Shown here: positions 30,667 through 47,465 of the stretch, in pieces
Position numbering within the stretch: position 1 is the stretch's first letter
Layout of the letters: each line of letters opens with the position of its first letter
Assembly (NCBI RefSeq): GCF_030818015.1
Contig: NZ_JAUSZX010000001.1
Coordinates: 4,402,001-4,466,000, forward strand
Source of the DNA: Arthrobacter globiformis
GTDB lineage: Bacteria > Actinomycetota > Actinomycetes > Actinomycetales > Micrococcaceae
Length of the DNA stretch: 64,000 nucleotides
Direction of reading: 5' to 3'
Made by a program: the position numbers and the translations under genes
Notes under the pieces: model-generated
What the model was told of the DNA's origin: nothing
Seen by the model: the letters and a program-made list of their open reading frames with translations, nothing else
Databases searched by the model: none

Positions 30667-30718
30667 TTCTGCTGAAGGGTGCATCCTTGTGTAAGGACGA
30701 GTTGAGATGAGGGTCACA

Positions 30719-31477
30719 ATGCACGCAATAGATTTGAACAGCGACGTCGGTGAATCCTTCGGGCGATGGAGCCTGGGAGACGACGCAGCCATGATGGCGT
30801 CCGTGTCGAGCGCCAACGTCGCCTGCGGATTTCACGCCGGCGATCCCAGCGTCATCCGGTCCACCTGCGAGGCGGCCGCCAGGGCCGGCGTGGTGGTCGG
30901 GGCCCACGTGGGCTATCGCGACCTGGCCGGATTCGGCCGCCGGTATATGGACGTCGACCCGCGGGAGCTGGCCGACGACGTCGTTTACCAGATCGGAGCG
31001 CTGCAGGCGCTGGCCGCGACGGCCGGCACCCGGGTCCGCTACGTGAAGCCGCATGGCGGCCTCTACAACGCCATCGTCCACAACACCGCCCAGGCACGCG
31101 CCGTCGTGGACGCGGTGAAGTCGGTGGATCCTGGCCTGCCCATCCTCGGCCTGCCCGGGTCCGAAGTGCTGCGTCTCGCGGAGGCGGCCGGGCTCCGTGC
31201 CGTCTCCGAGGCGTTCGCGGACCGGGCCTACAACCCGGACGGCACGCTGACGTCCCGCTCCCAGCCCGGATCCGTACTGGAGGACCCGGAGGCGGTTGCC
31301 GCCCGCGTCCTGCAGATGACCACCGGTGAGGCCATCAGCGCGATCGACGGTTCGGACCTGCTGATCAGCGCGGAATCGGTGTGCGTCCACGGGGATTCCC
31401 CGGGTGCGGTGGCCATGGCTGTGGCCGTGAAGGGCGCGCTCGACGCCGCCGGCATCAACATCAAAGCCTTCGTCTAG
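30719..31477 (+). CDS. pxpA: LamB/YcsF family protein (5-oxoprolinase subunit A-like)
   Basis: TIM-barrel-like hydrolase subunit of the ATP-dependent 5-oxoprolinase family. Hallmarks: [12 protein letters not shown] at the N-terminus, [28 protein letters not shown] and [12 protein letters not shown], with the metal/catalytic Asp and His residues of the family. The start ATG 30719 matches the usual MxxIDLNSD beginning; ATG 30707 (AAGGA upstream) would add four residues. Followed two bases later by the PxpB-PxpC fusion. In PxpABC the product is glutamate from 5-oxoproline; with a biotin carboxylase here, the substrate may differ. Confidence 0.9.
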
Positions 31478-31478
31478 C

Positions 31479-33326
31479 ATGAAGCGACGGATTCAGGACC
31501 CGATGGCAAACGTGGACATGCCCGCCGGATCAACCGGCCAGCCCGCGCCGGACGCGAGCCCAAACACCGCGCGTGCAAACACTGCGCGCCCAAACACGGC
31601 GCCCCCAAGCACCGCCCGCCCCGGCAGGGTGCGCGCGGTGCGGCCGGTGGGAACGCGCACGGTCCTCGCCGAAGTTTCCGGAACGCAGGACGTGCTCGCC
31701 CTGCAGGCCGCGCTCCTGGACGCTCCGCTGCCGGGCCAGCAAGACGTCCTGGCCGCCGCCGAGACCGTCATGGTCAGGGCCGAATCCCCCGCCGCTGCCC
31801 GGCGGATCGGGCAGGCCCTCCTGGAGCTGGACCTCACGGCACCGGCGGAGCAGGCCGGCGGCCTGGTGGTCATTGACACCGTGTACGACGGCGAGGATCT
31901 CGCCGAGGTGGGGCAGCTGACCGGCCTCGGTGCCGACGGAGTGATCGCAGCCCACACCGGCCAGGTCTGGACCATTGCCTTCGCGGGCTTCGCGCCCGGC
32001 TTCGGGTACATGGTGGGCGAGAACCAGGCGCTGGAGGTCCCGCGCCGGAGTTCCCCGCGCACCGCCGTCCCGGCAGGCTCGGTGGCGCTGGCCGGGAACT
32101 ACTCGGCCGTCTACCCGCGACAGTCTCCGGGAGGCTGGCAGCTGATCGGCCGCACCGGAGCGAAGATGTGGGACCTCGACCGCCCCGAACCCGCACTTGC
32201 CAGCCCGGGGCACCGGGTCCAGTTCCGCGCCGTCCGCGACGTGGTCCAGATGGTCACTGAACCCTCCGACGAAGCAACCAAGGACAGCCAGCAAACCGAC
32301 AGCCAGCAGGCACTCCCGGCAACTACCTCAGGCCTCCGTGTCCTGTCACCCGGGATCCACAGCCTCATCCAGGACCTTGGCCGGCAGGGGCATTCGGCCC
32401 TTGGCGTCTCCGCCGCCGGCGCGCTGGACCGGGCCTCGCTCCGCAGGGCAAACCGCCTGGTCGGGAACGCGCCGTCGGCCGCCGCCATCGAGACCGTCTC
32501 CGGCGGGCTCAGGGTCCAGGCTGTCGGCGATCAGGTCCTGGCCGTTGCGGGGGCGCCGTCGGCACTGACCGTTTCAACGCCGTCGGCCTCCCCCGACGCG
32601 CCGGAAACCGGCGAGACACAGAACGGCGAGACACAGAACCGGCAGCGTACCGTTCCCGTGGCAGCGCCGTTCGCCCTCCTCGACGGCGAAATCCTGACGA
32701 TCGGGGTTCCCGACGCCGGCTTCCGCAGCTACGTGGCTGTCCGCGGCGGCGTCGACGCGCCGCCGGTGCTGGGCAGCCGGTCCACGGACACGATGTCCGG
32801 CATCGGGCCCAAGCCACTGGCAGCCGGCCAACTGCTGCCGACCGGCGACGCGGCCGAGTCCGGCGTCGTGGGCAGCCCCGAAATCCAGCCTGACTATCCC
32901 AGCGGCGGGGTCACCGTGCTGGACATCGTCCCGGGCCCGCGCGCGGACTGGTTCGACCAGGCCGCCCTTGACTCCCTGTGCTCCCAGGACTGGACGGTCA
33001 AGCCGGAGTCCAACCGCGTGGGAATGAGGCTGCAGGGAACGCCGCTGCAGCGCAGCCGCACCGGCGAGCTGCCCAGCGAAGGAACGGTGGCGGGTGCCAT
33101 CCAGATGCCGCCGGAGGGCCTGCCCGTGCTCTTCCTCGCCGACCATCCCATCACGGGCGGCTACCCCGTGATCGGGGTGGTGGTTGACCACCAGCTCGAC
33201 CTGGCCGCCCAGGTCCCGATCGGCGGGAGCATCCGCTTCCGCATCGCCCCCGAATCTGCTGCCCCCGCCAGTTCCCCCGAACAGACTTCCCCCGAACAGA
33301 CTCCAGAAAGAAAAGCGAGTAACTGA
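31479..33326 (+). CDS. fused PxpB-PxpC (KipI-KipA) 5-oxoprolinase / allophanate-hydrolase-type subunits
   Basis: Single chain of 615 residues joining a KipI/PxpB-like domain (about 45-250, with [32 protein letters not shown] and [13 protein letters not shown]) to a KipA/PxpC-like domain (about 290-600, [55 protein letters not shown]). The same two domains form the carboxyltransferase of urea carboxylase. The N-terminus has four 5-residue repeats ([20 protein letters not shown]) encoded by 15-base tandem repeats, and a low-complexity segment (about 385-400, [11 protein letters not shown]) interrupts the second domain. ATG 31503 preceded by AGGA is an alternative start. Overlaps the next gene by one base. 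Confidence 0.88.
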
Positions 33327-35095
33327 TGCACAAGGTCCTCATTGCCAACCGCGGCGAAATCGCCGTCCGCATCGCCCGGGCCTGCGACGACGCCCAACTG
33401 GCATCCGTGGCTGTGTATGCCGAAATCGACGCGGACGCCATGCACGTCTCCGCCGCGGACGAAGCCTTCAGCCTGGACGGGAACTCCCCAACGGACACCT
33501 ATCTGAACATCCACAAGCTGCTCGACGTGGCTGCCAGGGCCGGAGCGGACGCCGTCCACCCCGGGTACGGCTTCCTGTCCGAGAACGCGGATTTTGCGCA
33601 GGCGGTGCTGGATGCCGGACTCGCGTGGATCGGACCGTCGCCGGAGGCCATCCGCCAGCTCGGCAACAAGATCACGGCCCGCGACATTGCCGTCAGCGCC
33701 GGCGCCCCGCTCGTGGCAGGCAGCGACGGGCCGGTGGAATCCGCTGCCGAGGCCCGCGCCTTCGCTGAGGAGCACGGCCTCCCGATTGCCATCAAGGCAG
33801 CCTTCGGCGGCGGCGGGCGCGGCCTAAAGGTGGTCCGGAACATGGAGGAGGTCGAGGAGGCCTTCGACTCCGCGGTGCGCGAGGCGGTGGCGGCGTTCGG
33901 CCGGGGCGAGTGCTTCGTGGAGCGCTACCTGGACCGGCCGAGGCATGTCGAAGCCCAGGTCCTGGCCGACACGCACGGCAACGTCATTGTCGTCGGAACC
34001 CGCGACTGCTCCCTCCAGCGCCGGCACCAGAAGCTGGTGGAGGAGGCGCCCGCGCCGTTCCTCAGCGACGGGCAGCGGGCCCAGATCTACGACGCCGCCA
34101 AGGCAGTCTGCCGGGAAGCCGGCTACTCGGGTGCCGGGACAGTGGAGTTTTTGGTCGCCGCCGACGGCACCGTCGCCTTCCTCGAGGTGAACACGCGGCT
34201 GCAGGTGGAACACCCCATCACCGAGGAAACCACGGGGATCGACCTGGTCCAGGAGCAGTTCCGGATCGCCGCGGGGGAACGGCTCCGCTTCACCGAGGAT
34301 CCAGCCCCGCGCGGCCATGCCTTCGAATTCAGGATCAACGCCGAGGACGTGGGTCGCGGCTTCCTGCCCTCCCCCGGCACCATCGGCGAATTCACCGCGC
34401 CCACCGGCCCCGGCATCCGGCTGGACACCGGAGTCCGGTCCGGCTCCGTCGTGGCGCCGCAGTTCGACTCGCTCCTGGCGAAGCTGATCGTCACCGGCGC
34501 CGACCGCCAGCAGGCGCTGCGCCGGGCCCGCCGCGCCCTCGCCGAGATCAGCATCACCGGTGTGGCCACCGTCCTGCCGTTCCACCGCGCGGTGGTGGAA
34601 GCTGCTGACTTCATTTCGGAGACCGGCATGGACGTCCACACCCGCTGGATCGAGACGGACTTCGCGGACAGCATCCCGGCGGATCCAGACTTCTCCCCCA
34701 CCGGCCCCGACGGCCGCCGGCGCACCATCACCGTGGACCTGGACGGCCGCCGGCTCGCGGTCGGGCTTCCGGCTGACCTGCTGGACGGCTGGGCCCGCTC
34801 AGGCCAGGCACTTCCCGGCGGCCTGGGGGCCGCAGCGGCCGGAGACGGCGGCTCAACCGACGGCGGAACCGGCGGCTCCGATCCTGCGCAGCTCCGCGCC
34901 GCCATGAGCGGCACAGTGGTGAAGTGGCTCGTGGAGCCGGGTGCCGACGTGACCGCCGGCGATCCCGTGGTGGTCCTGGAGGCGATGAAGATGGAGACCA
35001 GCGTCCCCGCCCACCGGGCCGGCGTCCTCTCCGGCGTCGCCGCCGCCCCCGGCGACGTGATCACCGCGGGCTCAGTCCTGGCGCTTATCGGCTAG
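33326..35095 (+). CDS. biotin carboxylase fused to biotin carboxyl carrier protein
   Basis: ATP-dependent biotin carboxylase (residues about 1-450: [62 protein letters not shown], the ATP-grasp and catalytic segments) linked by a Gly-rich region to a BCCP domain whose biotin Lys is K555 in LEAMKMETS. Length 589 is that of actinobacterial AccA-type alpha subunits. No carboxyltransferase of the AccD type is nearby; the adjoining PxpB-PxpC fusion is homologous to the carboxyltransferase of urea carboxylase, so these three genes may make a biotin-dependent carboxylase for an amide or lactam (inference). Confidence 0.9.
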
Positions 35096-35207: not shown

Positions 35208-35511
35208 TGTGAGGATTGTGGCGGCTGGTCTGGGACTGGCTGGCAGAGTGGTGTTGGCCGTTCAGCCCCCGTGGATGTGACTCATTAAGTGACTGGCCCT
35301 GCCAATGGTGTCTTTGAATGGATCTGTCCATTGGCGGGGGTGGCGGCCGGTACCACCCGGCCCACCTCGGTAACTTGATCAGAAGGTTGCCCGCCCCTTT
35401 TGGGGCGTGGCTCGTCACAGTGTTGTTCCGAAGTGACCTCTACCCGGACTGGTACCGGCCGTGTACGGCCCCTGACCACATCCGCGAATAGAGGAAGGTG
35501 CCAGAACCGCC
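35208..35511 (+). ncRNA. predicted IS110 bridge RNA in the left end
   Basis: The 304-base leader of the recombinase folds into two guide-bearing loops. Target loop: stem GCCAATGG/CCATTGGC (35301-35308, 35328-35335) holds GGTGTC (35307-35312), which pairs with the left target half AGTGTC, and TGAATGGA (35315-35322), which pairs with TCCGTTCG of the right half with two G-U wobbles. Donor loop: stem GGTAACTT/AAGTGACC (35369-35376, 35431-35438, one mismatch) encloses AGAAGG (35381-35386, identical to the right end at 36584-36588 region), an apical CGCCCC-TTTT-GGGGCG hairpin (35392-35407) and TCACAG (35415-35420), complementary to CTGTGA at the left end. Exact RNA ends unknown. Confidence 0.72.
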
Positions 35512-36584
35512 ATGACTATCGTTGCGCATTCCCGCCCGTTTGTCGTCGGCGTCGACACTCACGCCAAGAACCATGTCTACGCCGTCATCACCGGCATCAC
35601 TGGTGAGCTGATCGCCACCCGGGACTTCCCCACCACCGGGGCCGGCATCAACCGCGCAGTCGCCTGGGTCGCCCGCCACACCGGCGCTGACCTGGCGACC
35701 TTGTGGGTGATCGAGGGCGCTGCTTCCTACGGCGCACTGCTGGCCGGTGCCGTCGGCGCCGTCGGCTACCCGGTCGCCGAAGCCGCTCACATGGATGCCC
35801 GTCACCGTGCGGGCAAATCCGACCCGCTCGACGCGCACCGGATCGCCGCAGCCGTCCTGCCCCTGGAAGAGCAGCAGCTCCGCCAGCCACGGCTGGACGA
35901 AGGAGTCCGAGCGGCCCCTGCGGATTCTGGTCACCGCACGGGAATCCATGACCACCGAGCGTACCCGGGGCGTGAACGCGTTGACCGCCCTGCTCCGGGT
36001 CAACGACCTTGGCCTGGATGCGCGTAAACCCTTGACCGGAACCCAGATCGCCGAAGCCTCCCGCTGGCGGGCCCGGGAAGAACCGCTGGCCAAGTCCGTT
36101 GCCCGCTCCGAAGCAGTCCGGCTCGCCAAACACATCACCGAACTCGACGCGGACATCAAAACCAACAACGACCAAATCACCGGACTCGTCGAAATCAGCG
36201 AAGCCGCGCCCCTACTAAAGGAAACCGGGATCGGTCCCATCACGGCCGCCATCTGCCTGACCGTCTGGTCTCATCGGGGACGCGTCCATTCCGAGGCCGC
36301 CTTCGCGTCCCTGGCCGGAGCCAGCCCTATCCAGGCCTCGTCAGGGAACACCGTCCCACAGACTCAACCGCGGCGGTGACAGAACCTTGAACAAAGCCCT
36401 GCACCTGATCGCCCTAAGCCGGATGACCTTCGACCCCACCACCATCGACTACGTCCAGAAACGTCAAGCCGAAGGACGAACAAAAAAGGAGATCCGCCGG
36501 TGCGTGAAACGCTATCTCGCCCGACGGATCTACCGAATACTCAACGCCGCAGACCCAAGCCCCTCCCACGCTGGACAACCATAG
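35512..36584 (+). pseudogene. IS110-family recombinase (DEDD/Tnp_20), two frameshifts
   Basis: The N-terminal RuvC-like DEDD domain begins MTIVAHSRPFVVGVDTHAKN and includes GKSDPLDAHRIAAAVLPLEEQQL. The frame changes at a run of four C (35914-35917), continuing as LRILVTARESMTTERTRGVNALTALLRV and LKETGIGPITAAICLTVWSH, ASLAGASPIQASSGNTV, then changes again near 36352-36358 (GTCCCACAG), after which RLNRGGDRTLNKALHLIALSRM and KEIRRCVKRYLARRIYR complete the Tnp_20 domain. Each shift is one extra base, so the protein is not made as a whole unless these are assembly errors in C runs. Confidence 0.88.
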
Positions 36585-37650: not shown

Positions 37651-37983
37651 CTATTCTTCAGCGAGGATGTCTGCCATCCGGGCGACGCGTTGCCGCCAGA
37701 TCGCCTCGTACTCGTCAAGCAGCCGGCGGGCTTTCTCCAGGCCATCATGGTTGCCCCGCACGATCTGCTCCCTTCCGCGCTTCTCCTTGGTGACCAGGGA
37801 GGCACGCTCCAACACCGCCACATGCTTTTGAACGGCGGCGAAACTCATGGCGTAGAGGGCAGCCAGGCCGGTCACCGAGTACTCGCCCACCGTCACCCGG
37901 CGCATAATGTCCCGCCGGGTGGTGTCCGCGAACGCCTGGAAGAGGCGGTCAAGTTCGGCATCGCTAAGCTGATCTACAACCAT
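37651..37983 (-). CDS. ArsR-family transcriptional regulator
   Basis: Winged-helix repressor of 110 residues: LFQAFADTTRRDIMRRVTVGEYSVTGLAALYAMSFAAVQKHVAVLERASLVTKEKRGREQIV covers the helix-turn-helix and wing. No metal-binding Cys are present, so it is of the non-metal ArsR type associated with SRPBCC partners. First gene of a two-gene operon with the AHSA1-like gene. Confidence 0.9.
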   Translation of the reverse strand: MVVDQLSDAELDRLFQAFADTTRRDIMRRVTVGEYSVTGLAALYAMSFAAVQKHVAVLERASLVTKEKRGREQIVRGNHDGLEKARRLLDEYEAIWRQRVARMADILAEE

Positions 37984-38062
37984 TTGGTTGTAGGATATGA
38001 CCGCAGGGGAAGGGTGTCAATGGCCAGAATTGGGCCAGCCCAGGCTTGCGAGCGCAGCAGGG

Positions 38063-38959
38063 TCAGTCAGCCGCGAGCGCCTCGGACAGTGCCGTTATGA
38101 ACGCGCTGACGAGTGCGGATTTTCTGCGACCCGGCATGGTCTGGATCTGGCCTTCCCTCTGGTCGAAGACAGCATGGTCAACCGGGATGAAAACCAGGCC
38201 CGAACGGGCGTCGGCGGGAACGGCGAACCGGCTGGCGAGTGTGACGCCGGCACCGATTCGGGCGAACTCCAAGACGGACGCCAACGGGTCCGCTTCGAGG
38301 ACTATTTCCGCCGTCAGCCCTTCACGCTGCAAAGCAATGTCGAACAGTTCCCGCTGGGTAATCCCCCGCCCCGCCAGCGCCAGCTTGTGCTGGCAGAGCT
38401 CTTCCAGCGAAATGCTGCTGCGTCCGGCCAGCGGGTGGCTTTCCGTCACGGCGGCGTGGGGCGGGGCCGGAACTGAGAATTCAACGGTGACGTCCCTCTC
38501 GGGCCCCAGGCTGAAGACTGCGCCAACATCAGCCCGCCCGTCGATGACCTGGCGGGTTGCCTCGGCAGATGGGACAACAGCCAGCTTGATGACAACGTCG
38601 CGGTAGTTGGTACTAATATGCGCCATGGCCCCTGCGACCCTGCCGCTCGCCAACCCCTCGGCACTTGCAATCTTTATAACCCTTTTTCTACCCGTCGCCG
38701 AATCCCGCAGTTCCTCCAGCAGGGCATCGCCTTCAACTTCGCTCCGGCGGGCATGGGCGAGAAGCAGCCGACCGGCCTCGGTCAGGACCATGCCACGGGG
38801 ATGACGGGCAAACAGCGGCACACTCACGGACGATTCGAGCTTGCTGATCTGACGGCTGATGGCGGACGCCGAGACGTGCAAGTTGCTGGCCGCTTCGGTA
38901 ATCGATCCAGTCCCCGCCACTTCCTTGAAATAGATCAAAGACGTCGGCAGCAAACGCAT
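38063..38959 (-). CDS. LysR-family regulator of the ACC-deaminase operon
   Basis: LysR-type regulator of 298 residues. Helix-turn-helix: FKEVAGTGSITEAASNLHVSASAISRQISKLESSVSVPLFARHPRGMVLTEAG (about 10-62); the rest is the periplasmic-binding-like inducer domain. It is divergent from the M20 hydrolase gene with 115 bases between, which hold a CGGTTT-N12-AAACCG inverted repeat. ACC deaminase operons elsewhere are often controlled by an Lrp-type regulator (AcdR); a LysR here is unusual. Inducer probably ACC or a conjugate (inference). Confidence 0.88.
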   Translation of the reverse strand: MRLLPTSLIYFKEVAGTGSITEAASNLHVSASAISRQISKLESSVSVPLFARHPRGMVLTEAGRLLLAHARRSEVEGDALLEELRDSATGRKRVIKIASAEGLASGRVAGAMAHISTNYRDVVIKLAVVPSAEATRQVIDGRADVGAVFSLGPERDVTVEFSVPAPPHAAVTESHPLAGRSSISLEELCQHKLALAGRGITQRELFDIALQREGLTAEIVLEADPLASVLEFARIGAGVTLASRFAVPADARSGLVFIPVDHAVFDQREGQIQTMPGRRKSALVSAFITALSEALAAD

Positions 38960-38971
38960 CGCGCCTCCTAT

Positions 38972-38995
38972 CGGTTTGCATTTAACTCAAAACCG
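38972..38995. promoter_or_regulatory. LysR-type operator in the ACC-operon control region
   Basis: CGGTTT and AAACCG separated by 12 bases, 13 bases before the LysR start and about 80 before the M20 gene. LysR regulators bind such interrupted palindromes in divergent promoters. A possible -10 (GATACT) lies downstream near 39007. Confidence 0.5.
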
Positions 38996-39074
38996 GTTGC
39001 TCAAACGATACTAGCCTGTGAATCAGGACACACCTAGGCTCGTCTCAAGCAATCATGAACAGAGGAGATGCCGC

Positions 39075-40490
39075 ATGAGTTCACGGTCCGGAATCCTTCG
39101 CAAGGCTGAGCGATACATCACCTCGGGGAGCTTCCCCCGCGACTTGGAGAAGGCGGTGTCCTACCGAACTGTAAGCGGAACCTCCGCGGGCCGGATTTCT
39201 TTGGATGCATACCTCACTCAGGTTCTGACACCCTCGCTGGAGGATCTCGGCTGCGACGTGCAGCGGTTCGATTGCTGGAACGGCAGCGACAATTCGTTCC
39301 TCATCGGGACCAGAACGGAAAATCCGGAGCTGCCGACTGTCCTCTGCTACGGGCACGCGGACGTCGTGGCGGGACAGGACGGCGACTGGGCTGCGGGCCG
39401 GAGCCCCTGGAAGCTGACCCTGGAAGGCGGCCGCTGGTACGGGCGCGGAACTGCGGACAACAAGGGCCAGCATCTGGTCAATCTCACCGCGCTTCACCTC
39501 GTCCTGGCCGAACAGGAAAGTCTTGGCTTCAATCTGAAGTTTCTTTTCGAATGCGGTGAGGAAATCGGGTCCCCTGCGCTGGCGGAGTTTGCCTCCGCCC
39601 ACCGGGACGAGCTGTCCGCCGACGTCTTCATTGCCTCTGACGGGCCCCGGCTGGACGCAGAGACGCCGACAATTTTCCTGGGCTCCCGCGGCAGCGCAGG
39701 CTTCGACCTGGTTGCCGACCTCAGGCCGGATTCATACCACTCGGGGAATTGGGGCGGGCTGCTGCGCAATCCTGCGACTACGCTGGCAGCAGCCATCGGC
39801 ACGCTCGTTGACGGTCACGGCCGGATTCAGATCGACGGATTGCTGCCCCCGGAGTTCCCCGCATCCGTTCGTGGTCGCCTTGCGGACATCGCCGTCGTTC
39901 CAGGCGCGGGCGACCCGAAGCCGGACGACGGGTGGGGTGAACCGAACCTGAGCCCCGCGGAGCGACTCTACGGATGGAACACCCTGGAGGTTCTCGCGAT
40001 AGCCGCCGCGGATGTGGACAATCCGATCAACGCCATACCGGGTTCGGCGCGCGCGGTACTGCAGCTGCGATTCGTCGCAGGGACGGATATCTCCAACTAT
40101 GAAGGTAGAATCCAGCGGCACTTGGAGGCCCGGGGACTGGGCATGGTTCGGGCGCGCGCCACAACCGTATTCCCTGCCAGCAGGCTGGACCCTGACAACC
40201 CCTGGGTGGAATGGGCCAGCAGCTCCATCCGGGAGACCACAGGGCAGGTGGCCGCCGTTCTACCGAATTTTGGCGGGTCCCTGCCCAACCACGTTTTCGA
40301 GGACATCCTTGGTCTACCCACGCTGTGGATCCCGCACTCATATCCGGGCTGCCTTCAGCACGCCCCCAATGAACACATGATCGAATCCATTGCCCACCAG
40401 GGGCTGCAGATCGCGTGCGGCCTGTTTTACGATCTCGGCCGGAGCCACGGCGGAACCACGCCCAGCCAAGCCGCCGCTGCCACTGCCTGA
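39075..40490 (+). CDS. M20-family metallohydrolase (N-acyl amino acid amidohydrolase / dipeptidase type)
   Basis: Dizinc peptidase/amidohydrolase of 471 residues. Metal ligands are recognisable: H in CYGHADVV, D in YGRGTADNKGQH, the catalytic EE pair in FECGEEIGSP, D in IASDGP and the late His in LQHAPNEH. An insertion lid domain lies about residues 200-330. The start ATG 39075 follows GAGGAG; ATG at 39018 lacks a site. Members cleave N-acyl, dipeptide or gamma-glutamyl-type amides. As first gene of an operon with an ACC deaminase it is proposed to release ACC from an amide conjugate such as malonyl- or gamma-glutamyl-ACC (inference, not proven). Confidence 0.85.
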   Translation: MSSRSGILRKAERYITSGSFPRDLEKAVSYRTVSGTSAGRISLDAYLTQVLTPSLEDLGCDVQRFDCWNGSDNSFLIGTRTENPELPTVLCYGHADVVAGQDGDWAAGRSPWKLTLEGGRWYGRGTADNKGQHLVNLTALHLVLAEQESLGFNLKFLFECGEEIGSPALAEFASAHRDELSADVFIASDGPRLDAETPTIFLGSRGSAGFDLVADLRPDSYHSGNWGGLLRNPATTLAAAIGTLVDGHGRIQIDGLLPPEFPASVRGRLADIAVVPGAGDPKPDDGWGEPNLSPAERLYGWNTLEVLAIAAADVDNPINAIPGSARAVLQLRFVAGTDISNYEGRIQRHLEARGLGMVRARATTVFPASRLDPDNPWVEWASSSIRETTGQVAAVLPNFGGSLPNHVFEDILGLPTLWIPHSYPGCLQHAPNEHMIESIAHQGLQIACGLFYDLGRSHGGTTPSQAAAATA

Positions 40491-40518
40491 GCCCATCCAT
40501 TCTCTTCGAGGAAGCCCC

Positions 40519-41847
40519 ATGAACAGCACATCCCTGACCGGGTCAGCTTCTCAGCCGCCCACGGCCGGCAGCGCCGGCACCAGCCCCGCAACCTCCCAAT
40601 CAAAGAAGGCCGCCATCCGCGGCATTGTGGCAGCAACGGTCGGCAACGCCCTCGAGTGGTTCGACATGGGCATTTACGCTCTGTTGGCCATCTATATCGG
40701 GAAGAACTTCTTCCCGGCTGCAAACCCTGCCGTGGAACTCATCCAAGCCTTCGCGGTTTTCGGAGTCTCGTATTTGATCCGTCCCATCGGCGGGCTGATC
40801 CTCGGATCCTACGCGGACCGGAAAGGACTGAAGAAAAGCCTGATGCTGACCATCCGTTTGATGGTCCTGGGCACTGCGCTGATCGCGTTCATGCCCGGAT
40901 ATGACCAGATCGGTTTGCTGGCGCCTCTCGGCATCATCCTGGCTCGTCTGATCCAGGGCTTCTCGGCCGGCGGGGAATTCGGTGCCGCCACATCCTTCCT
41001 GATCGCGCAGGACTCCAAGCGCAAAAGCTTTCTGGGGAGCTTCCAGTTCGCCAGCCAGGGCCTGGGGGCGCTCATGGCGGCAGTCTTCGTCGCTATACTG
41101 ACGGCCTTGCTGTCTGATGCCGACATGACTGCCTGGGGCTGGCGGATTCCCTTCGTCTTCGGTCTGCTCGTGGGCCCCGCGGGATACCTCATCCGCAAGC
41201 AGGTCGATGAAGCCCCCATCGTCCGCACTGCCGAAACGGTCAAGGATTCTCCGATCGTTGACGTCTTCAAGACGCAGAAGCTCGGCATGCTGATTGCCGC
41301 GGGTGCGCTGGCTATCTCCACAGCAATCAACTTCATCCTGCAGTACATGCCGACCTACGGCATCAAGCAACTTGGCCTGCACCCCTCTGCGTCCTTCAGC
41401 TGTCTGGTGATCACCGGTGTGATCCTGACCTTCGGCACTCCCTTGGTGGGCCACCTCGCGGACAAGTATGGGCGCCTGAAGATCATGGTGCCCTCCGTCA
41501 TCATCACGGGGCTTATGGTGATCCCGCTTTTCCTGTGGCTCATCGCCGGCAAGTCGTTGCTGGTTCTGGCAGCTACGATGACCATCCTCGGATGCTTAAA
41601 GGCCGCCTACTTCGGGGCCCTGCCGTCGCTCATGTCCGATGCCTTTGACGCGCGCTCCCGGACTACCGGCCTGTCCTTCAGCTACAACGCCTCGGTGGCG
41701 GCTTTCGGCGGCTTCACTCCCATGGTCGCCACCTACCTCATCGAAACCACTGGGCAAGCCATCGCACCCGGCTACTATCTGGCCGTGTTGGCCTGCCTAA
41801 GTCTGGCTGCCCTTGGGGCCGGGCTTAAGTGGCAGGGTATCCGATAA
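40519..41847 (+). CDS. MHS-family MFS transporter of the ACC operon
   Basis: Twelve-helix MHS symporter (442 residues): VGNALEWFDMGIYALLA in helix 1, GSYADRKGLKKSLML between helices 2 and 3, RLIQGFSAGGEFGAATSFL in helix 5 and GHLADKYGRLKIM further on. Related to ProP/KgtP-like carriers of zwitterions and dicarboxylates, both chemically fitting for ACC or malonyl-ACC. ATG 40519 has GAGGAAG upstream, and it follows the M20 gene by 28 bases. Probably the importer of the operon's substrate. Confidence 0.88.
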   Translation: MNSTSLTGSASQPPTAGSAGTSPATSQSKKAAIRGIVAATVGNALEWFDMGIYALLAIYIGKNFFPAANPAVELIQAFAVFGVSYLIRPIGGLILGSYADRKGLKKSLMLTIRLMVLGTALIAFMPGYDQIGLLAPLGIILARLIQGFSAGGEFGAATSFLIAQDSKRKSFLGSFQFASQGLGALMAAVFVAILTALLSDADMTAWGWRIPFVFGLLVGPAGYLIRKQVDEAPIVRTAETVKDSPIVDVFKTQKLGMLIAAGALAISTAINFILQYMPTYGIKQLGLHPSASFSCLVITGVILTFGTPLVGHLADKYGRLKIMVPSVIITGLMVIPLFLWLIAGKSLLVLAATMTILGCLKAAYFGALPSLMSDAFDARSRTTGLSFSYNASVAAFGGFTPMVATYLIETTGQAIAPGYYLAVLACLSLAALGAGLKWQGIR

Positions 41848-41958
41848 CCATTCCCGTCCGCGACCGGCCTCCCTCTACCTCCGGCCGTGACGCCAGGCGC
41901 TGTGTCCCCAACGGCCTGACGCCTGTCATCCACTACCAACTGCTACTGAAGGATTCCA

Positions 41959-42969
41959 ATGGCCATCACTGATTTTGAGCGTTACCCCCTCATGTTCGGA
42001 CCGAGCCCCGTCCATCCGCTGCCCCGCCTCACCGCCCACCTCGGTGGCGCCAAGATCTGGGCAAAGCGTGAAGACGTCAACAGCGGCCTCGCCTTCGGCG
42101 GCAACAAGACGCGCAAGCTGGAGTACATCGTGCCAGACGCCATCGCCCAGGGAGCGGACACGCTTGTATCGATCGGCGGCTACCAGTCAAACCACACAAG
42201 ACAAGTGGCGGCAGTGGCGGCAAAGCTGGGTTTGAAAGCACGACTGGTGCAGGAAAACTGGGTGGAGTGGCCGGACCCGCTTAGCGACCGGGTTGGAAAC
42301 ATCCTGCTTTCACGGCTGATGGGCGCGGACGTGCGGCTCGACGCAGCCGGTTTCGATATCGGCATCCGCAGCAGCTGGGAAAACGCCATAGAAGAAGTCA
42401 AAGCTGCCGGCGGAAAACCCTATGCCATTCCGGCAGGTGGCTCCGACCACCGCCTTGGTGGTCTGGGCTTCGCGAACTGGGCCGATGAGGTCCAGCAACA
42501 AGAACGCGAGCTCGGCGTCTTCTTTGACACCATCGTCGTCTGCACGGTCACTGGATCCACGCACGCAGGCATGATTGCCGGATTCGCCGGCCAGGACAAG
42601 CCCCGCCGCGTCATCGGCATCGATGCCTCGGCAACCTTGCAGAAGACTCGTGACCAGGTTGAACGCATTGCCCGGAGTACCGCCGAGCTTATTGGGCTGG
42701 AGCGCGACCTCCGCGACGACGAAATCAACGTCATGGAAGGCTGGGCCGGTGACCTGTACGGCATTCCCGTCGACTCGACCCTGGAAGCTATACGACTGGG
42801 CGCCTCGCTTGAAGCCATGATCACCGACCCCGTTTACGAGGGAAAATCCCTTGCCGGGCTCATTGATCTGGTGACGAACCGGGACATTCCTGCCAGCAGC
42901 AATGTCCTCTACGCCCACCTCGGCGGCCAGCTCGCCCTCAACGCCTACAGCGGGCTCTTCCGCTCTTAG
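41959..42969 (+). CDS. acdS: 1-aminocyclopropane-1-carboxylate (ACC) deaminase
   Basis: PLP enzyme cleaving ACC to 2-oxobutyrate and ammonia (336 residues, family length 338). The N-terminus [19 protein letters not shown] and the whole chain follow known AcdS proteins. Diagnostic residues are all present: PLP Lys K50 in [11 protein letters not shown]77, Y267 (DLYG), Y293-E294 in DPVYEGKS and L321 in YAHLGG. The last two separate true ACC deaminases from D-cysteine desulfhydrases (Ser/Thr there). One local deviation is H79 in YQSNHTRQ where AcdS usually has Gln. Start ATG 41959 with AAGGA. Third gene of the operon, followed 48 bases later by an E1-like enzyme. Confidence 0.88.
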
Positions 42970-43017
42970 CCCCGCGATAACAGGGCCTGCTTTGGAGAAG
43001 TTGGGAAAGGAACCCAC

Positions 43018-45399
43018 ATGACCATCTCGGACAGAACAGTGTCACCCGTTGCCAGCGAGCCGTCCGTCAACGACAGGCCGCTCTCTGCCGGCGCCACCCT
43101 TGACGAGGACGTGCTTGACTCGATTGCCCAGCGCGTTCTTTGGACGGCAACCGCAATTATCGACGCAGCCAACCGGGGGCGGGCGAACACGTCCGGTGTG
43201 AAGGTCGGCGGACATCAGGCTTCCAGCGCATCCATGGTGGGCATCATGACCTCCCTGTGGTTCGCGGAACTGACTGCCGAGGACAGAGTGTCAGTCAAAC
43301 CGCACGCGTCCCCGGTGCTTCACGCCATCAACTATCTGCTCGGAGATCTGGATGAACGCTACCTGCCGGCGCTCAGGGCCAAGGGCGGGCTGCAAAGCTA
43401 TCCCAGCCGGCTCAAGGACCCGGACACCGTGGACTTCTCCACGGGAAGCGTCGGGATCGGGGCCACTGCGCCGTTGTGGGCGGCCATGTCCCACCGCTAT
43501 CTTCGCGATCAGTTTCCCGACACACCCAGGGCCGGGCGTTTCATAAGCCTGCTTGGGGACGCGGAACTCGACGAAGGCGCCGTATGGGAGGCCATAACAG
43601 ACACCGGCGCCCGGCAGCTCGGTGAACTGCTGTGGATTGTTGACCTCAACCGCCAGTCCCTGGACCGAGTGATTCCGGACGTGCAGATCAAAAGGCTGCA
43701 GGGAATGTTCGCCGCGGCAGGCTGGCAGGTCCTGACCTGCAAATGGGGACGCCGGATCCAGAAACTGTTCCTCCAGCCGGGCGGCCGGGAATTGCGGGAA
43801 CGGCTGGAGGCCATGCCCAACGAGGAGTATCAGCGGATGCTGCGCAGCCACCCTGGCGAGCTGCACGACCGGATGCTCGGCCCGGATCCGAAACCCGCCC
43901 TCCGGGATCTCGTGGCGGGCCTCAGCGGGCTGGAGTTGTCCGCCGCGGTCCGTGACCTGGGAGGGCATGACATTCGGCTTCTCTTGGATACGTACCGCGA
44001 GATCGATGCCTCCCGGCCCACGGTGATATTCGCCTACACGGTCAAGGGCCGCGGGCTGGCAACTGAAGGGCATCCCAACAACCATGCAGCACAACTGAAT
44101 GAATCGCAGATGGAGGAATTGGCGGCCCTGTCCGGGATGACTTTAGCGTCTCCGTGGCGCAAATTCAGGCAAGGGACCGAAGAACACAAGGCCTGCAACG
44201 AGGCAAGCCAACGTCTCCGCCGCCCGGAAATCCAGGTCCGCGAGATTGCAGCGCTCCCGGCCTCGCTGCCCTGGAGCTATAAGGCTGTCGTGTCCACCCA
44301 GGCGACCCTGGGACGGTTCCTGTCGGACCTGAAACGGTGCGCACCCGAAGCGGCCGCCCGCGTCGTCACACTGAGCCCCGACGTCGCGTCCTCCACGAAC
44401 CTTGGCGGCTGGATCAACAAGACGGGCATATGGTCCGTGGGTGAACGGCACGATTGGTTCTCGGACGATTCCGAGCGGCTCCTCAAGTGGTCCGAAGGCG
44501 CCCAGGGACAGCATATCGAACTGGGCATCGCGGAGGTCAACCTCGTATGCCTCGCCGGCGAACTCGGTGCAACATGGAGCCGGTGGGGCCAGCCACTGAT
44601 CCCGATCGCCACCGTCTATGATCCGTTCGTCTCACGGGCCCTTGAACCGTGGTCCTACGGGATTTACGCCGGTGGGCAATCAATCCTGGTCGGCACACCA
44701 TCCGGGGTGACCCTGGCGCCCGAGGGCGGAGCGCATCAGTCAATCACCACGCCCTCCATCGGCCTGGAACAGCCCGGATGCACGGCTTGGGAGCCTGCCT
44801 TCGCGCAGGACCTCGAATGGTGCATCCTACAGGCGATGAATCAGATCGGCCGGCCCGATGGTCGCTCCGCATACTTCCGGCTGTCGACCCGGCCTGTCGA
44901 CCAGACACTTGCCCGCATCCCTACAGATGTGGCCCTGCTGGAGCGCCGCCGGCAGCACGCAGTCGCCGGCGGTTACCGCATCACCGATCATGCTCCGACA
45001 CGCGAGAATGTGACACTGGTCGGCGTGGGCGCCATCATGCCCGAAGTACTTGCCGCAGCGGCGCGGCTGAATGCTCTGGGAGTGACCGCCGGCGTCGTCT
45101 GCCTGACCAGCCCGGACCTGGTGTTCCGGTCGCTGCAGGACCGGCACAAGGTGGCCGGTTCACCCCGCAGCGCCATCGTGGACGAACTGTTCCCCGCTGA
45201 CCATGCCACACCATTGGTCACCGTCCTGGACGGACATCCGCATACGCTTGCCTTTTTGGCGGGCGTACGGGGTGACCGCACCCGGAACCTTGGCGTGACT
45301 GAATTCGGCCAATCCTCAGATCTCGAGGACGCCTACAAACTACACGGGATCGACGTCGACTCCATCGTGAGGGCGGCTGTCGATATCGCCAACCACTAA
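43018..45399 (+). CDS. AceE-type pyruvate/2-oxobutyrate dehydrogenase E1 component
   Basis: Homodimeric thiamine-diphosphate 2-oxoacid dehydrogenase E1 (793 residues), about 90 shorter than typical AceE. ThDP-binding loop: ISLLGDAELDEGAVWEA ... ELLWIVDLNRQSLD; further conserved GHQASSASMVGIMTSLWFAEL, FAYTVKGRGLATEGHPNNHA and LAPEGGAHQSI. No E2/E3 genes are adjacent, so it must use a housekeeping E2/E3. In Pseudomonas putida MdeB, an AceE relative encoded beside methionine gamma-lyase, prefers 2-oxobutyrate; its position next to acdS suggests the same substrate here (inference). Start ATG with AAAGGAAC 6 bases upstream. Confidence 0.88.
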   Translation: MTISDRTVSPVASEPSVNDRPLSAGATLDEDVLDSIAQRVLWTATAIIDAANRGRANTSGVKVGGHQASSASMVGIMTSLWFAELTAEDRVSVKPHASPVLHAINYLLGDLDERYLPALRAKGGLQSYPSRLKDPDTVDFSTGSVGIGATAPLWAAMSHRYLRDQFPDTPRAGRFISLLGDAELDEGAVWEAITDTGARQLGELLWIVDLNRQSLDRVIPDVQIKRLQGMFAAAGWQVLTCKWGRRIQKLFLQPGGRELRERLEAMPNEEYQRMLRSHPGELHDRMLGPDPKPALRDLVAGLSGLELSAAVRDLGGHDIRLLLDTYREIDASRPTVIFAYTVKGRGLATEGHPNNHAAQLNESQMEELAALSGMTLASPWRKFRQGTEEHKACNEASQRLRRPEIQVREIAALPASLPWSYKAVVSTQATLGRFLSDLKRCAPEAAARVVTLSPDVASSTNLGGWINKTGIWSVGERHDWFSDDSERLLKWSEGAQGQHIELGIAEVNLVCLAGELGATWSRWGQPLIPIATVYDPFVSRALEPWSYGIYAGGQSILVGTPSGVTLAPEGGAHQSITTPSIGLEQPGCTAWEPAFAQDLEWCILQAMNQIGRPDGRSAYFRLSTRPVDQTLARIPTDVALLERRRQHAVAGGYRITDHAPTRENVTLVGVGAIMPEVLAAAARLNALGVTAGVVCLTSPDLVFRSLQDRHKVAGSPRSAIVDELFPADHATPLVTVLDGHPHTLAFLAGVRGDRTRNLGVTEFGQSSDLEDAYKLHGIDVDSIVRAAVDIANH

Positions 45400-45522
45400 G
45401 AAGCAGTGACTTGGTCAGGGCACCGAAGGTTCCGTACTGAAAGGGCCTGGGGACACAGTCCATGCCCCCCGCGCCCGTCCCTTGTCCGGCTGTTTGCGCG
45501 GCAATAATGGTCTACACGCTCC

Positions 45523-45648
45523 GCGTGACGGATCCCGCAGGTCCGCGTCCAGCAGCGCGTCGAGCAGCGGCCGCCCGTACGGCTTCCGCTCGCCCAGCCG
45601 GTTCAGGTTCGGCCCGTTCAGGACGCCGATGTGCAGGCTGCCGCTCAC
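45523..45648 (-). pseudogene. fragment of type II 3-dehydroquinate dehydratase (aroQ)
   Basis: MSGSLHIGVLNGPNLNRLGERKP matches the N-terminal signature of AroQ-type dehydroquinases (IxVLNGPNLNxLGxRxP), with a YGR close by. After about 40 residues the match stops and the frame continues into unrelated sequence to 45415; the rest of the roughly 145-residue enzyme is missing. The start codon overlaps the end of the KstD-like gene, so it was the last gene of that operon. Breakage probably coincides with insertion of the ACC operon on the other side. Confidence 0.7.
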
Positions 45649-47465
45649 AGCGCCCCCACCCCGGAGTCCGCGGGCACAGTCCCGTCATCCTCGTACTCCA
45701 CGGCGCCGGCCAGGTCCCGGCCGGCAACGTATCCGAACGCCAGCGCCGGGCCGAGGTTGATGCCGCCGGCGGGATAGTGCCCGCCCATCACGCTGGCCTG
45801 GTCATTGCCGGCGACGTAGAGACCCGGGATGGGCCGGCCTCCGTCGTCCAGGGCCCGGGAGCGGCCGTCCACATTCAGTCCCGCGAACGTGCCAAAGCTG
45901 CCCGGCACCACGCGCACGGCGTAGAACGGGCCCTTCTCGATGGGGCCCAGCGACGGATTCGGCTTTACAGACGGGTCTCCGCCATACCGGTTGAAGGGCG
46001 TGGAGCCGCGGCCGAAGTCCGGGTCCGCGCCGGCGGCCGCATGGCGGTTGAAGCGCTCCACGGTCTCTTTCAGCCCGGCAGGGTCGATGCCGCACCGCTC
46101 CGCGAGTTCCTCGAGGGTGCGGCCTTTCTTCAGATAGCCGGAGCGCAGGTACGGGAAGAGCGGCACGGGCAGCGGTTTGGCCATGCCCAGCGGAAAGCGG
46201 CGCACAAAGCGGGAGTCGGCGATCTGCCAGGCCTCCACCGGCTCCCCCGCCGGCGTAGCCTCCAGCATGGCGGCCACGTAATCGTAGTACCCGTTGGCCT
46301 CGTTGACGAACCGCTTCCCGCTGCGCAGGACGCCGATGCTGCCGGGCTTGGCGCGGTCCATGATGTGCGGGAACGTGCCGGTCCGGCCGCTGCGGTACGG
46401 CACCAACGACACCGGGCACCATGCGGCCGCTGATTTCACGTCGGTCCGGAAGCGGGCACCGACCGACTGGCCCAGGCTGATGCCGTCGCCGCTGGCCTCG
46501 CCGGGCGCCAGCGTCCAGTGTTCCCGCCCGGTGGGTGTGTTCGGGAACAGCACTTTCCGGCGCTGCACATCGTGCGGGAAGCCTCCGGCGGCCAGGACCA
46601 CCCCGCGTGAAGCGTTGATCCGCAGCTCCCCTTCCGGGGTTCCGACGACGGCGCCCGTCACCTTGCCTGCCCCGTCGGTCAGCAGGCGCCGGGCCGGCGT
46701 GGAGACGCGGACGTCCACGCCGAAGCGGTCTGCGGACTGCAGCAGCCGGCCGGTCAGGGCCGTGCCGTTGACCAGCTGCATGTTGCGCCGGTGCGTCAGC
46801 AGGTCCAGGATGTGCAGGCCGAAGCGCCAGCCTGCATGGAAGAGCCCGCGCGGATTGCCCCGGGACGCGGACAGGAATTTGGCCAGGTCCGGTCCGGCCA
46901 TGATGCCCATTCCCAGGAATGAGGTTTCATACAGCTGGTGCCGGAGCCTGGCGCGCACCTCAGGACGGATCCGCCGGGCGTTCAGGGGCTTGGGCCCCAC
47001 GGAGCGCTGCCCGGTCCCGGCCCCGGGAAGGCCGCCGTAGATGTCGTTGATCCTGGCGCCCGGGACGAACTGCAGCGACGTCTTCTCGTGAAAGAAGCCC
47101 ACCATGTGCGGGACCGCCTCCAGGAACGCGTCCACCCTGTCGGCCTGGTAGTCGGTCCCCAGGACACCGCGCAGGTAGGTACGGAAGGTCTCCTTGTCCT
47201 CGCTGACGCCGGCGGCCCTGGCCAGCGGATTGCCCGGCGCCCAGGCCCAGCCGCCCGACCACGCCGTGGCACCGCCGCACACGTCCGCCTTTTCCACCAC
47301 CACAACCTTCAGCCCGTGGTAGGCGGCCGTCACGGCGGCGGCCAGGCCGCCCGCGCCGGAGCCCACCACCAGGACGTCGCAGTTCAGGGTGCAAAGCACA
47401 TCTTCGGCAGCCGGCGCATTGGCTACGGCCACGGAAGGCGCTGTTCCATCAGTCGGGAAAGTCAT
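45645..47465 (-). CDS. FAD-dependent oxidoreductase (fumarate reductase/KstD-like)
   Basis: Flavoprotein of 606 residues. FAD-binding loop: CDVLVVGSGAGGLAAAVTAAYHGLKVVVVEK (about 30-60), followed by GGATAWSGGWAWAPGNPLA; C-terminal FAD segment GLYVAGNDQASVMGGHYPAGGINLGPALAFGYVAGR. This is the architecture of 3-ketosteroid delta1-dehydrogenase and flavocytochrome fumarate reductase. With aroQ, an OYE-type reductase and a shikimate-like transporter nearby, a desaturase role on a cyclohexane/cyclohexenone carboxylate is likely. Paralogous to the protein at 59792. First gene after the aldo-keto reductase, 20-base gap. Confidence 0.86.
   Translation of the reverse strand: MTFPTDGTAPSVAVANAPAAEDVLCTLNCDVLVVGSGAGGLAAAVTAAYHGLKVVVVEKADVCGGATAWSGGWAWAPGNPLARAAGVSEDKETFRTYLRGVLGTDYQADRVDAFLEAVPHMVGFFHEKTSLQFVPGARINDIYGGLPGAGTGQRSVGPKPLNARRIRPEVRARLRHQLYETSFLGMGIMAGPDLAKFLSASRGNPRGLFHAGWRFGLHILDLLTHRRNMQLVNGTALTGRLLQSADRFGVDVRVSTPARRLLTDGAGKVTGAVVGTPEGELRINASRGVVLAAGGFPHDVQRRKVLFPNTPTGREHWTLAPGEASGDGISLGQSVGARFRTDVKSAAAWCPVSLVPYRSGRTGTFPHIMDRAKPGSIGVLRSGKRFVNEANGYYDYVAAMLEATPAGEPVEAWQIADSRFVRRFPLGMAKPLPVPLFPYLRSGYLKKGRTLEELAERCGIDPAGLKETVERFNRHAAAGADPDFGRGSTPFNRYGGDPSVKPNPSLGPIEKGPFYAVRVVPGSFGTFAGLNVDGRSRALDDGGRPIPGLYVAGNDQASVMGGHYPAGGINLGPALAFGYVAGRDLAGAVEYEDDGTVPADSGVGAL

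What the first reader, a model, noticed from the sequence alone, without database searches (positions are those of the whole stretch)
38063..45399. Candidate operon for use of conjugated ACC: amidohydrolase, transporter, ACC deaminase, 2-oxobutyrate dehydrogenase
The ACC deaminase carries all diagnostic residues. It is cotranscribed with an M20 amidohydrolase and an MHS transporter upstream and an AceE-like E1 downstream. Plants store ACC as malonyl- and gamma-glutamyl-ACC; an M20 enzyme can cleave such amides. The genes in order would import, release, deaminate and oxidise the resulting 2-oxobutyrate. I know of no description of a conjugate-cleaving ACC operon. The conjugate and the role of the M20 enzyme are inference.
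Basis: partly seen in the sequence, partly recalled or inferred. Interest (0 to 1): 0.85.

Follow-up and report, generated by a model that had tools for sequence, protein, structure and literature searches.

The report
Amide-splitting ACC breakdown operon in Arthrobacter
A soil bacterium carries, as one inserted block of genes, a complete-looking route to import and split a small amide, deaminate the likely product (the ethylene precursor ACC) and burn the rest for energy; part of this arrangement was noted in print in 2014, but what the amide is remains untested as far as was found.

Summary
The five genes are real: LysR (−), then M20, MHS, acdS and an AceE-like E1 (+), on a 7.6-kb block missing from a relative with 88-91% identical flanks. 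The deaminase passes the curated ACC-deaminase cut-off and keeps the six diagnostic residues. The E1 is not AceE (215 bits, cut-off 860). Of 16 other close E1s in the family sample, acdS lies directly upstream in 8 and a methionine-gamma-lyase-like gene in 2, so 2-oxobutyrate is its likely substrate.

The order is not unique. Three of 13 M20-bearing Streptomyces have LysR|M20-MHS-acdS, and Nascimento et al. 2014 reported such operons without proposing a function. Of 25 plasmids examined with this M20, 9 carry acdS, 8 of them within 9 kb. Trees favour separate assembly in the window and in Streptomyces.

Against it: in the genus, M20-MHS stands without acdS in all 17 other M20-bearing genomes, none of which is among those with acdS. 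The M20 fold is nearest to carnosinase-type dipeptidases. A pathway from an amide through AcdS to propionyl-CoA is well supported; an ACC conjugate is plausible but unproven, and malonyl- versus gamma-glutamyl-ACC cannot be decided here. Verdict: new variant of a known arrangement, with a testable function.

The parts
38063..38959 (-). LysR-type regulator, divergent from the operon
   Evidence: PF00126 and PF03466; 70-71% identical to the LysR of standalone M20-MHS modules L130-L133
38960..39074 (.). divergent intergenic region, presumed LysR-controlled promoter
   Evidence: 115 bp between the two start codons; promoter function inferred
39075..40490 (+). M20 metallopeptidase/amidohydrolase (PRK07079 subfamily), 471 aa
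   Evidence: NF005478 661 bits, cut-off 330; H94, D96, D128, E162, E163, D189, H222, R332, H429 conserved over 60 homologues (their roles are recalled); AlphaFold model nearest to 2pok, carnosinases and Dug1p
40519..41847 (+). MHS-type metabolite:H+ symporter of the major facilitator superfamily
   Evidence: PF07690; TIGR00883 338 bits, below its 443 cut-off; 81% identical to the MHS of L130-L133
41959..42969 (+). acdS, ACC deaminase, 336 aa
   Evidence: TIGR01274 543 bits, cut-off 392; diagnostic residues kept; best solved match 1rqx, ACC deaminase, E 6e-139
43018..45399 (+). AceE-like thiamine-diphosphate E1, 793 aa, likely 2-oxobutyrate dehydrogenase E1
   Evidence: Best match TIGR00759 aceE but 215 bits against cut-off 860; acdS or methionine-gamma-lyase-like gene directly upstream in 10 of 16 close family homologues
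38031..45665 (.). inserted block carrying these five genes
   Evidence: Relative G009 has both flanks contiguous across about 60 bp; GC3 0.73-0.78 inside, 0.84-0.89 in the genes of 30.7-35.1 kb and 45.6-52.5 kb

Best explanation
A horizontally acquired, LysR-controlled catabolic operon. The MHS symporter brings in a small carboxylated amide or dipeptide-like compound (inferred). The two-metal M20 enzyme splits it and releases an amino acid, most likely ACC from a conjugate made by plants (inferred). AcdS opens the ring to 2-oxobutyrate and ammonia (family function). The E1, with the cell's own lipoyl E2 and E3, oxidises 2-oxobutyrate to propionyl-CoA (inferred). The operon joins two modules that exist separately in relatives, LysR|M20-MHS and acdS-E1.
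For: AcdS passes the family cut-off with all six diagnostic residues. E1 sits behind acdS in 8, and behind a Met-gamma-lyase-like gene in 2, of 16 close family homologues. LysR|M20-MHS-acdS recurs in 3 of 13 M20-bearing Streptomyces. R. pseudokoreensis plasmid: LysR|M20-MHS about 7 kb from acdS-lipA-RidA-E1-E2. M20 and acdS share 9 of 25 plasmids examined, within 9 kb in 8; for the first 8 records random placement gives combined p 5e-6. The M20 tree needs 9 changes of the acdS-linked label, at least 8 forced, so the linkage was gained or lost many times; the window's M20 and AcdS group with separate standalone Arthrobacter genes. Gamma-glutamyltransferase lies beside M20 in Salipiger abyssi, Salipiger CCB-MM3, Pseudosulfitobacter, Palleronia and Ruegeria; acdS is 5-6 kb away in the first and third.
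Against: In the genus, none of 17 other M20-bearing genomes is among those with acdS (expected overlap by chance about 1.9 of 206), so the M20-MHS module has a use without it. In the class sample M20 and acdS share 3 of 394 genomes and are adjacent only in the window. The acdS-linked label is not clearly clustered on the M20 tree (57 of 500 shuffles as low). The M20 fold is nearest to dipeptidases, which does not favour malonyl-ACC. Of 25 plasmids with M20 examined, 16 have no acdS. No substrate, expression or activity data.
Confidence: 0.5

Rival explanations
1. M20-MHS is a general dipeptide or N-acyl-amino-acid scavenging module that shares a promoter with acdS-E1 because both nutrients come from plant matter; M20 does not produce AcdS's substrate.
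For: M20-MHS without acdS in 17 of 17 other genus genomes; no acdS near M20 in 15 of 18 loci of the class and Streptomyces samples (one cut off by a contig end; MHS follows in 7 of these 15). M20 lies beside oligopeptide ABC transporters and gamma-glutamyltransferase with no acdS in the record in Ruegeria and Salipiger CCB-MM3, and 28.7 kb from acdS in Palleronia.
Against: Repeated linkage of M20 with acdS, and the same compact order in two lineages whose genes are not each other's nearest kin.
Confidence: 0.33
2. M20 releases, and AcdS deaminates, a different amino acid: a D-amino acid, or a substituted cyclopropane such as coronamic acid.
For: In Salipiger abyssi, Pseudosulfitobacter and Paroceanicella the M20-acdS clusters also carry D-serine ammonia-lyase and an amidase, the first two also a FAD oxidoreductase and RidA. 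The plant malonyltransferase is thought to take both ACC and D-amino acids (PMC6921899, passages). That coronatine is an amide of coronamic acid is recalled.
Against: The six plasmid AcdS tested, and the window's, are over the ACC-deaminase cut-off and below those of D-cysteine desulfhydrase and D-cysteate lyase; E295 and L322 kept; the E1 points to 2-oxobutyrate.
Confidence: 0.12
3. Chance neighbours brought together by insertion, with no shared pathway.
For: The block is an insertion, and M20 next to acdS was seen only in the window among 206 genus and 394 class genomes.
Against: Same strand, short gaps, intact frames, and recurrence of M20 beside acdS in Streptomyces, Rhodococcus, Azospirillum, Pantoea and others.
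Confidence: 0.05

Closest known systems
acdS-MFS-M20 operons of Saccharopolyspora erythraea and Streptomyces hygroscopicus (Nascimento et al. 2014, PMC4048297)
   Same: LysR nearby, M20 peptidase, MFS transporter and acdS; LysR|M20-MHS-acdS found here in three Streptomyces genomes
   Different: No function proposed in the section read (its figure S2 not seen); no E1 near acdS in the three Streptomyces; the window's copy looks separately assembled
acdS with neighbouring GntR regulator (acd-AR) of Actinobacteria
   Same: Same AcdS family; the closest Arthrobacter AcdS are 92-95% identical. A GntR-family gene lies within two genes of acdS in 29 of 73 loci with a gene call (of 80)
   Different: In the window LysR, M20 and MHS stand where the regulator would be
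mde operon of Pseudomonas putida (methionine gamma-lyase and MdeB, an AceE-like E1); recalled, not in a call
   Same: A PLP enzyme that makes 2-oxobutyrate followed by an AceE-like E1; window-type E1 follows a Met-gamma-lyase-like gene in two genomes
   Different: Here the PLP enzyme is ACC deaminase; no MdeB sequence was available to compare
Carnosinase/Dug1p-type M20 dipeptidases (3dlj, 2zof, 4g1p)
   Same: Fold and metal-ligand residues
   Different: 20-23% identity; substrate unknown

Membership tests
ACC deaminase (AcdS, TIGR01274) | score over curated equivalog cut-off | tested here: met
   543 against 392 bits
ACC deaminase (AcdS, TIGR01274) | K51, S78, Y268, Y294, E295, L322 | tested here: met
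   All six kept; E295 and L322 named in PMC4048297, the other four recalled
ACC deaminase (AcdS, TIGR01274) | ACC deaminase activity | not testable with these tools
   Needs enzyme assay
LysR-M20-MFS-acdS arrangement (Nascimento 2014) | M20, MFS and acdS in one operon with LysR nearby | tested here: met
   Window coordinates; same order in L202-L204
AceE, homodimeric pyruvate dehydrogenase E1 (TIGR00759) | score over curated cut-off | tested here: not met
   215 against 859.9 bits
MdeB-type 2-oxobutyrate dehydrogenase E1 | linked to a gene that makes 2-oxobutyrate | tested here: met
   acdS upstream in 8, Met-gamma-lyase-like in 2 of 16 homologues; 2 undetermined at contig ends, 4 with other neighbours
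MdeB-type 2-oxobutyrate dehydrogenase E1 | activity on 2-oxobutyrate; similarity to MdeB | not tested
   No MdeB sequence in hand; assay needed
M20 dipeptidase (carnosinase/Dug1p type) | two-metal ligands and fold | tested here: met
   Ligand residues conserved over 60 rows (assignment recalled); Foldseek E about 1e-31
M20 dipeptidase (carnosinase/Dug1p type) | dipeptidase activity | not testable with these tools
   Needs assay
ACC-conjugate hydrolase | hydrolysis of malonyl- or gamma-glutamyl-ACC | not testable with these tools
   No sequenced reference found; a 2014 review calls the plant MACC hydrolase unknown (PMC4227472, passages)
MHS metabolite:H+ symporter (TIGR00883) | score over curated cut-off | tested here: not met
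   338.5 against 443.45 bits; the broad Pfam MFS_1 and Sugar_tr gathering scores are passed

The most novel reading that the evidence does not exclude
The M20 enzyme is a bacterial ACC-conjugate hydrolase and the operon a dedicated pathway that taps the plant's stored ethylene precursor. The wider M20-acdS clusters (gamma-glutamyltransferase, D-serine ammonia-lyase, amidase; malonyl-CoA synthase and decarboxylase next door in Pseudosulfitobacter) would be a cross-phylum system for gamma-glutamyl or malonyl conjugates of ACC and D-amino acids, put together repeatedly by convergence.
Probability: 0.33. Interest if true: 0.78.

Novelty: new variant of a known kind. Interest (0 to 1): 0.55.

Why it matters
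ACC deaminase is the textbook enzyme by which bacteria lower plant ethylene, and in the papers seen here it is described as acting on free ACC. If bacteria also open stored conjugates, they can reach a pool that plants set aside, and the plant's unidentified MACC hydrolase would gain a bacterial counterpart with a gene. The operon names the gene, regulator and transporter to test, and gives a family of clusters to compare.

Tried and rejected
'Unique to this strain' was rejected for M20 beside acdS by Streptomyces and plasmid examples. 'M20-MHS always travels with acdS' was rejected too. Reading the E1 as ordinary AceE was rejected on score. A malonate route in the own genome (PF05292) gave no hit, but the control genomes gave none either, so nothing follows. 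No terminal inverted repeats or target duplication were recognised at the block's ends by eye. The metagenome contigs behind P0002 (M20, 89%) and P0122-P0124 (E1, 93-95%) could not be fetched with the tools at hand, so whether they carry the same operon is open. Paper searches for a bacterial MACC hydrolase or a function of the M20-acdS pair (one search returned nothing) listed no title on it. I opened six of the listed papers: PMC4048297 (section 13 read, else passages), and PMC4227472, PMC5827301, PMC6921899, PMC10174264 and PMC4563596 (passages or term search only). The last two mention LysR but not M20 or conjugates. Subscription journals are mostly not in that library.
Full report
WHAT IS THERE. 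The window lies in an Arthrobacter-like genome (G000, 5.09 Mb; the closest named AcdS are from Arthrobacter). LysR 38063-38959 points left; M20 39075-40490, MHS 40519-41847, acdS 41959-42969 and E1 43018-45399 point right, with gaps of 28, 111 and 48 bp. Terminator-like hits on the + strand fall outside the gaps. One transcript is inferred, not shown.

AN INSERTED BLOCK. In relative G009 the flanks (88.6% and 88.3% identical over kilobases, 91% at the edges) are contiguous across about 60 bp where the window has 7,635 bp (38031-45665) with these five genes. GC3 is 0.73-0.78 in the five genes and 0.84-0.89 in the called genes of 30.7-35.1 and 45.6-52.5 kb; three short or doubtful ORFs at 35.1-37.0 kb, where an IS110 remnant lies, are also low (0.71-0.76). 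Insertion here is likelier than loss in G009, but only one empty site was found; in a second relative (G244) only the right flank aligned.

ACC DEAMINASE. TIGR01274 543 bits, cut-off 392; D-cysteate lyase 313 (cut-off 450) and D-cysteine desulfhydrase 220 (cut-off 429) fall short. The six diagnostic residues are kept. One match is in the genome.

E1. The best family is aceE at a quarter of its cut-off. In 395 family genomes, 17 have a near full-length match of at least 58% identity, own included; four broken or partial ones (G178, G227, G122, G377) are left out. Of the 16 others, acdS is directly upstream in 8 (recounted), a Cys/Met-metabolism PLP enzyme nearest to methionine gamma-lyase in 2 (one scanned, the other in its cluster; the family cut-off is not reached), an alcohol-dehydrogenase-like gene in 2 (a small ORF between in one), a divergent Lrp/AsnC regulator in 2, and 2 lie at contig ends. 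Among the 80 acdS loci, some of them cut short by contig ends, 5 have a near full-length E1 downstream and one (L007) a remnant; L108 has another remnant. acdS-E1 thus looks like an older pair that many Arthrobacter have lost. On a Rhodococcus plasmid acdS, lipA, RidA, E1 and a lipoyl E2 lie together, which fits a 2-oxobutyrate dehydrogenase complex. The window has no E2 next to the E1, so it would use the cell's own (inferred).

M20 AND MHS. The M20 belongs to PRK07079 (661 bits, cut-off 330). Metal-ligand residues, and the His and Arg that in this fold hold the substrate's carboxylate (roles recalled), are conserved over 60 homologues with at most one deviation each. The AlphaFold model (mean pLDDT 87.8, pTM 0.86) is nearest to 2pok, carnosinases CN1 and CN2, and Dug1p, ahead of DapE and carboxypeptidase G2. 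In the genus 18 of 206 genomes have it at E up to 1e-100. In the 17 others MHS follows M20 in 17, a divergent LysR is found in 16 (a fragment in the 17th), and acdS is beside it in none. None of those 17 genomes is among the 22 of 206 with acdS at E up to 1e-110; only G000 has both, against about 1.9 expected. This is the strongest evidence against an ACC-only role.

RECURRENCE WITH acdS. Class sample: M20 in 7, acdS in 54 of 394; both in 3 (G000, G676, G757), on different contigs in the latter two. Plasmids: 122 records hold the M20 at E up to 1e-60, 60 of them listed. I examined 25: 23 lineages from the 60 listed rows (near-copies skipped; three further lineages, H34, H35 and H51, not examined) and two, Salipiger abyssi and Rhizobium etli 8C-3, picked from the acdS/E1 side. 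acdS of at least 60% identity is present in 9 (one 39% match in Rhizobium BT04 not counted) and absent in 16. Distances: Pantoea 1.0, Azospirillum 1.2, Pseudosulfitobacter 5.0, Caballeronia M1242 5.8, Salipiger abyssi 5.9, Paroceanicella 6.3, Rhodococcus 6.8, R. etli 8.6, Palleronia 28.7 kb. For the eight records before Pantoea, random placement gives a combined p of 5e-6; the test takes each record alone and conditions on both genes being present. Six plasmid AcdS tested all pass TIGR01274.

REPEATED ASSEMBLY. In the M20 tree (60 rows; Pantoea came later and is not in it) the acdS-linked label needs 9 changes, at least 8 forced by supported branches; it is not clearly clustered (57 of 500 shuffles as low). 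The window M20 groups 100/98 with standalone modules L130-L133. In the AcdS tree (88 of 106 rows after dropping near-copies; bootstrap not fully settled) the window groups 100/91 with Arthrobacter genes without M20, and the Streptomyces operonic AcdS lie elsewhere. Either the linkage formed at least twice in Actinobacteria, or it is old and mostly lost; local ancestry of both halves favours the first.

WHAT THE SUBSTRATE MIGHT BE. Plants make malonyl-, gamma-glutamyl- and jasmonyl-ACC, and a MACC hydrolase was reported twice but is unknown (PMC4227472, passages). For gamma-glutamyl or peptide-like: M20 beside gamma-glutamyltransferase and oligopeptide ABC transporters, and the dipeptidase-like fold. 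For malonyl: an MHS-type carrier (that such carriers take carboxylates is recalled), a CoA-transferase after M20-MHS in L134 and L135 (the latter scanned), and malonyl-CoA synthase and decarboxylase next to the Pseudosulfitobacter cluster. Neither is decisive.

PRIOR ART. Nascimento et al. 2014, section 13 (read in full), reports acdS with MFS and M20 in S. erythraea and S. hygroscopicus, LysR nearby, and M20 near acdS in some of a list of Proteobacteria that includes Pantoea At-9b; one search shows it there. No function is proposed in that section. A search naming 2-oxobutyrate dehydrogenase with ACC deaminase returned nothing, and the two later reviews checked by term search do not mention M20 or conjugates.

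VERDICT.

Noticed in passing
window 35440-36379: IS110-family transposase remnant in two frames, about 2 kb left of the inserted block.
   Followed up: partly
window 30707-35095: 5-oxoprolinase-type cluster (PxpA, PxpC-like, biotin carboxylase) just upstream; 5-oxoproline can arise from gamma-glutamyl compounds (recalled), but its GC3 is that of the surroundings and the link may be chance.
   Followed up: no
window 37974-37993: Perfect palindrome CTACAACCA TT TGGTTGTAG at the start of a small ArsR-like gene (37651-37983, just under Pfam's gathering score), kept in relative G009; a likely operator.
   Followed up: no
L108 1501-1779; L007 9064-9286: Remnants of the E1 gene directly behind acdS, showing decay of an older acdS-E1 pair in Arthrobacter.
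   Followed up: yes
L172 8115-14759: Rhodococcus pseudokoreensis plasmid (apple rhizosphere) has acdS, lipA, RidA, E1 and a lipoyl E2 together: most of a plasmid-borne 2-oxo acid dehydrogenase set.
   Followed up: partly
L182, L173, L192, L193: Rhodobacterales plasmid clusters: peptide ABC transporter, M20, D-serine ammonia-lyase and amidase in all four, with gamma-glutamyltransferase in three, RidA in three and acdS in three; no description was met in the papers opened.
   Followed up: partly
L007, L021, L037: Actinobacterial-type acdS contigs filed under Acidobacteria, Sporosarcina and Stenotrophomonas; contamination or transfer.
   Followed up: no
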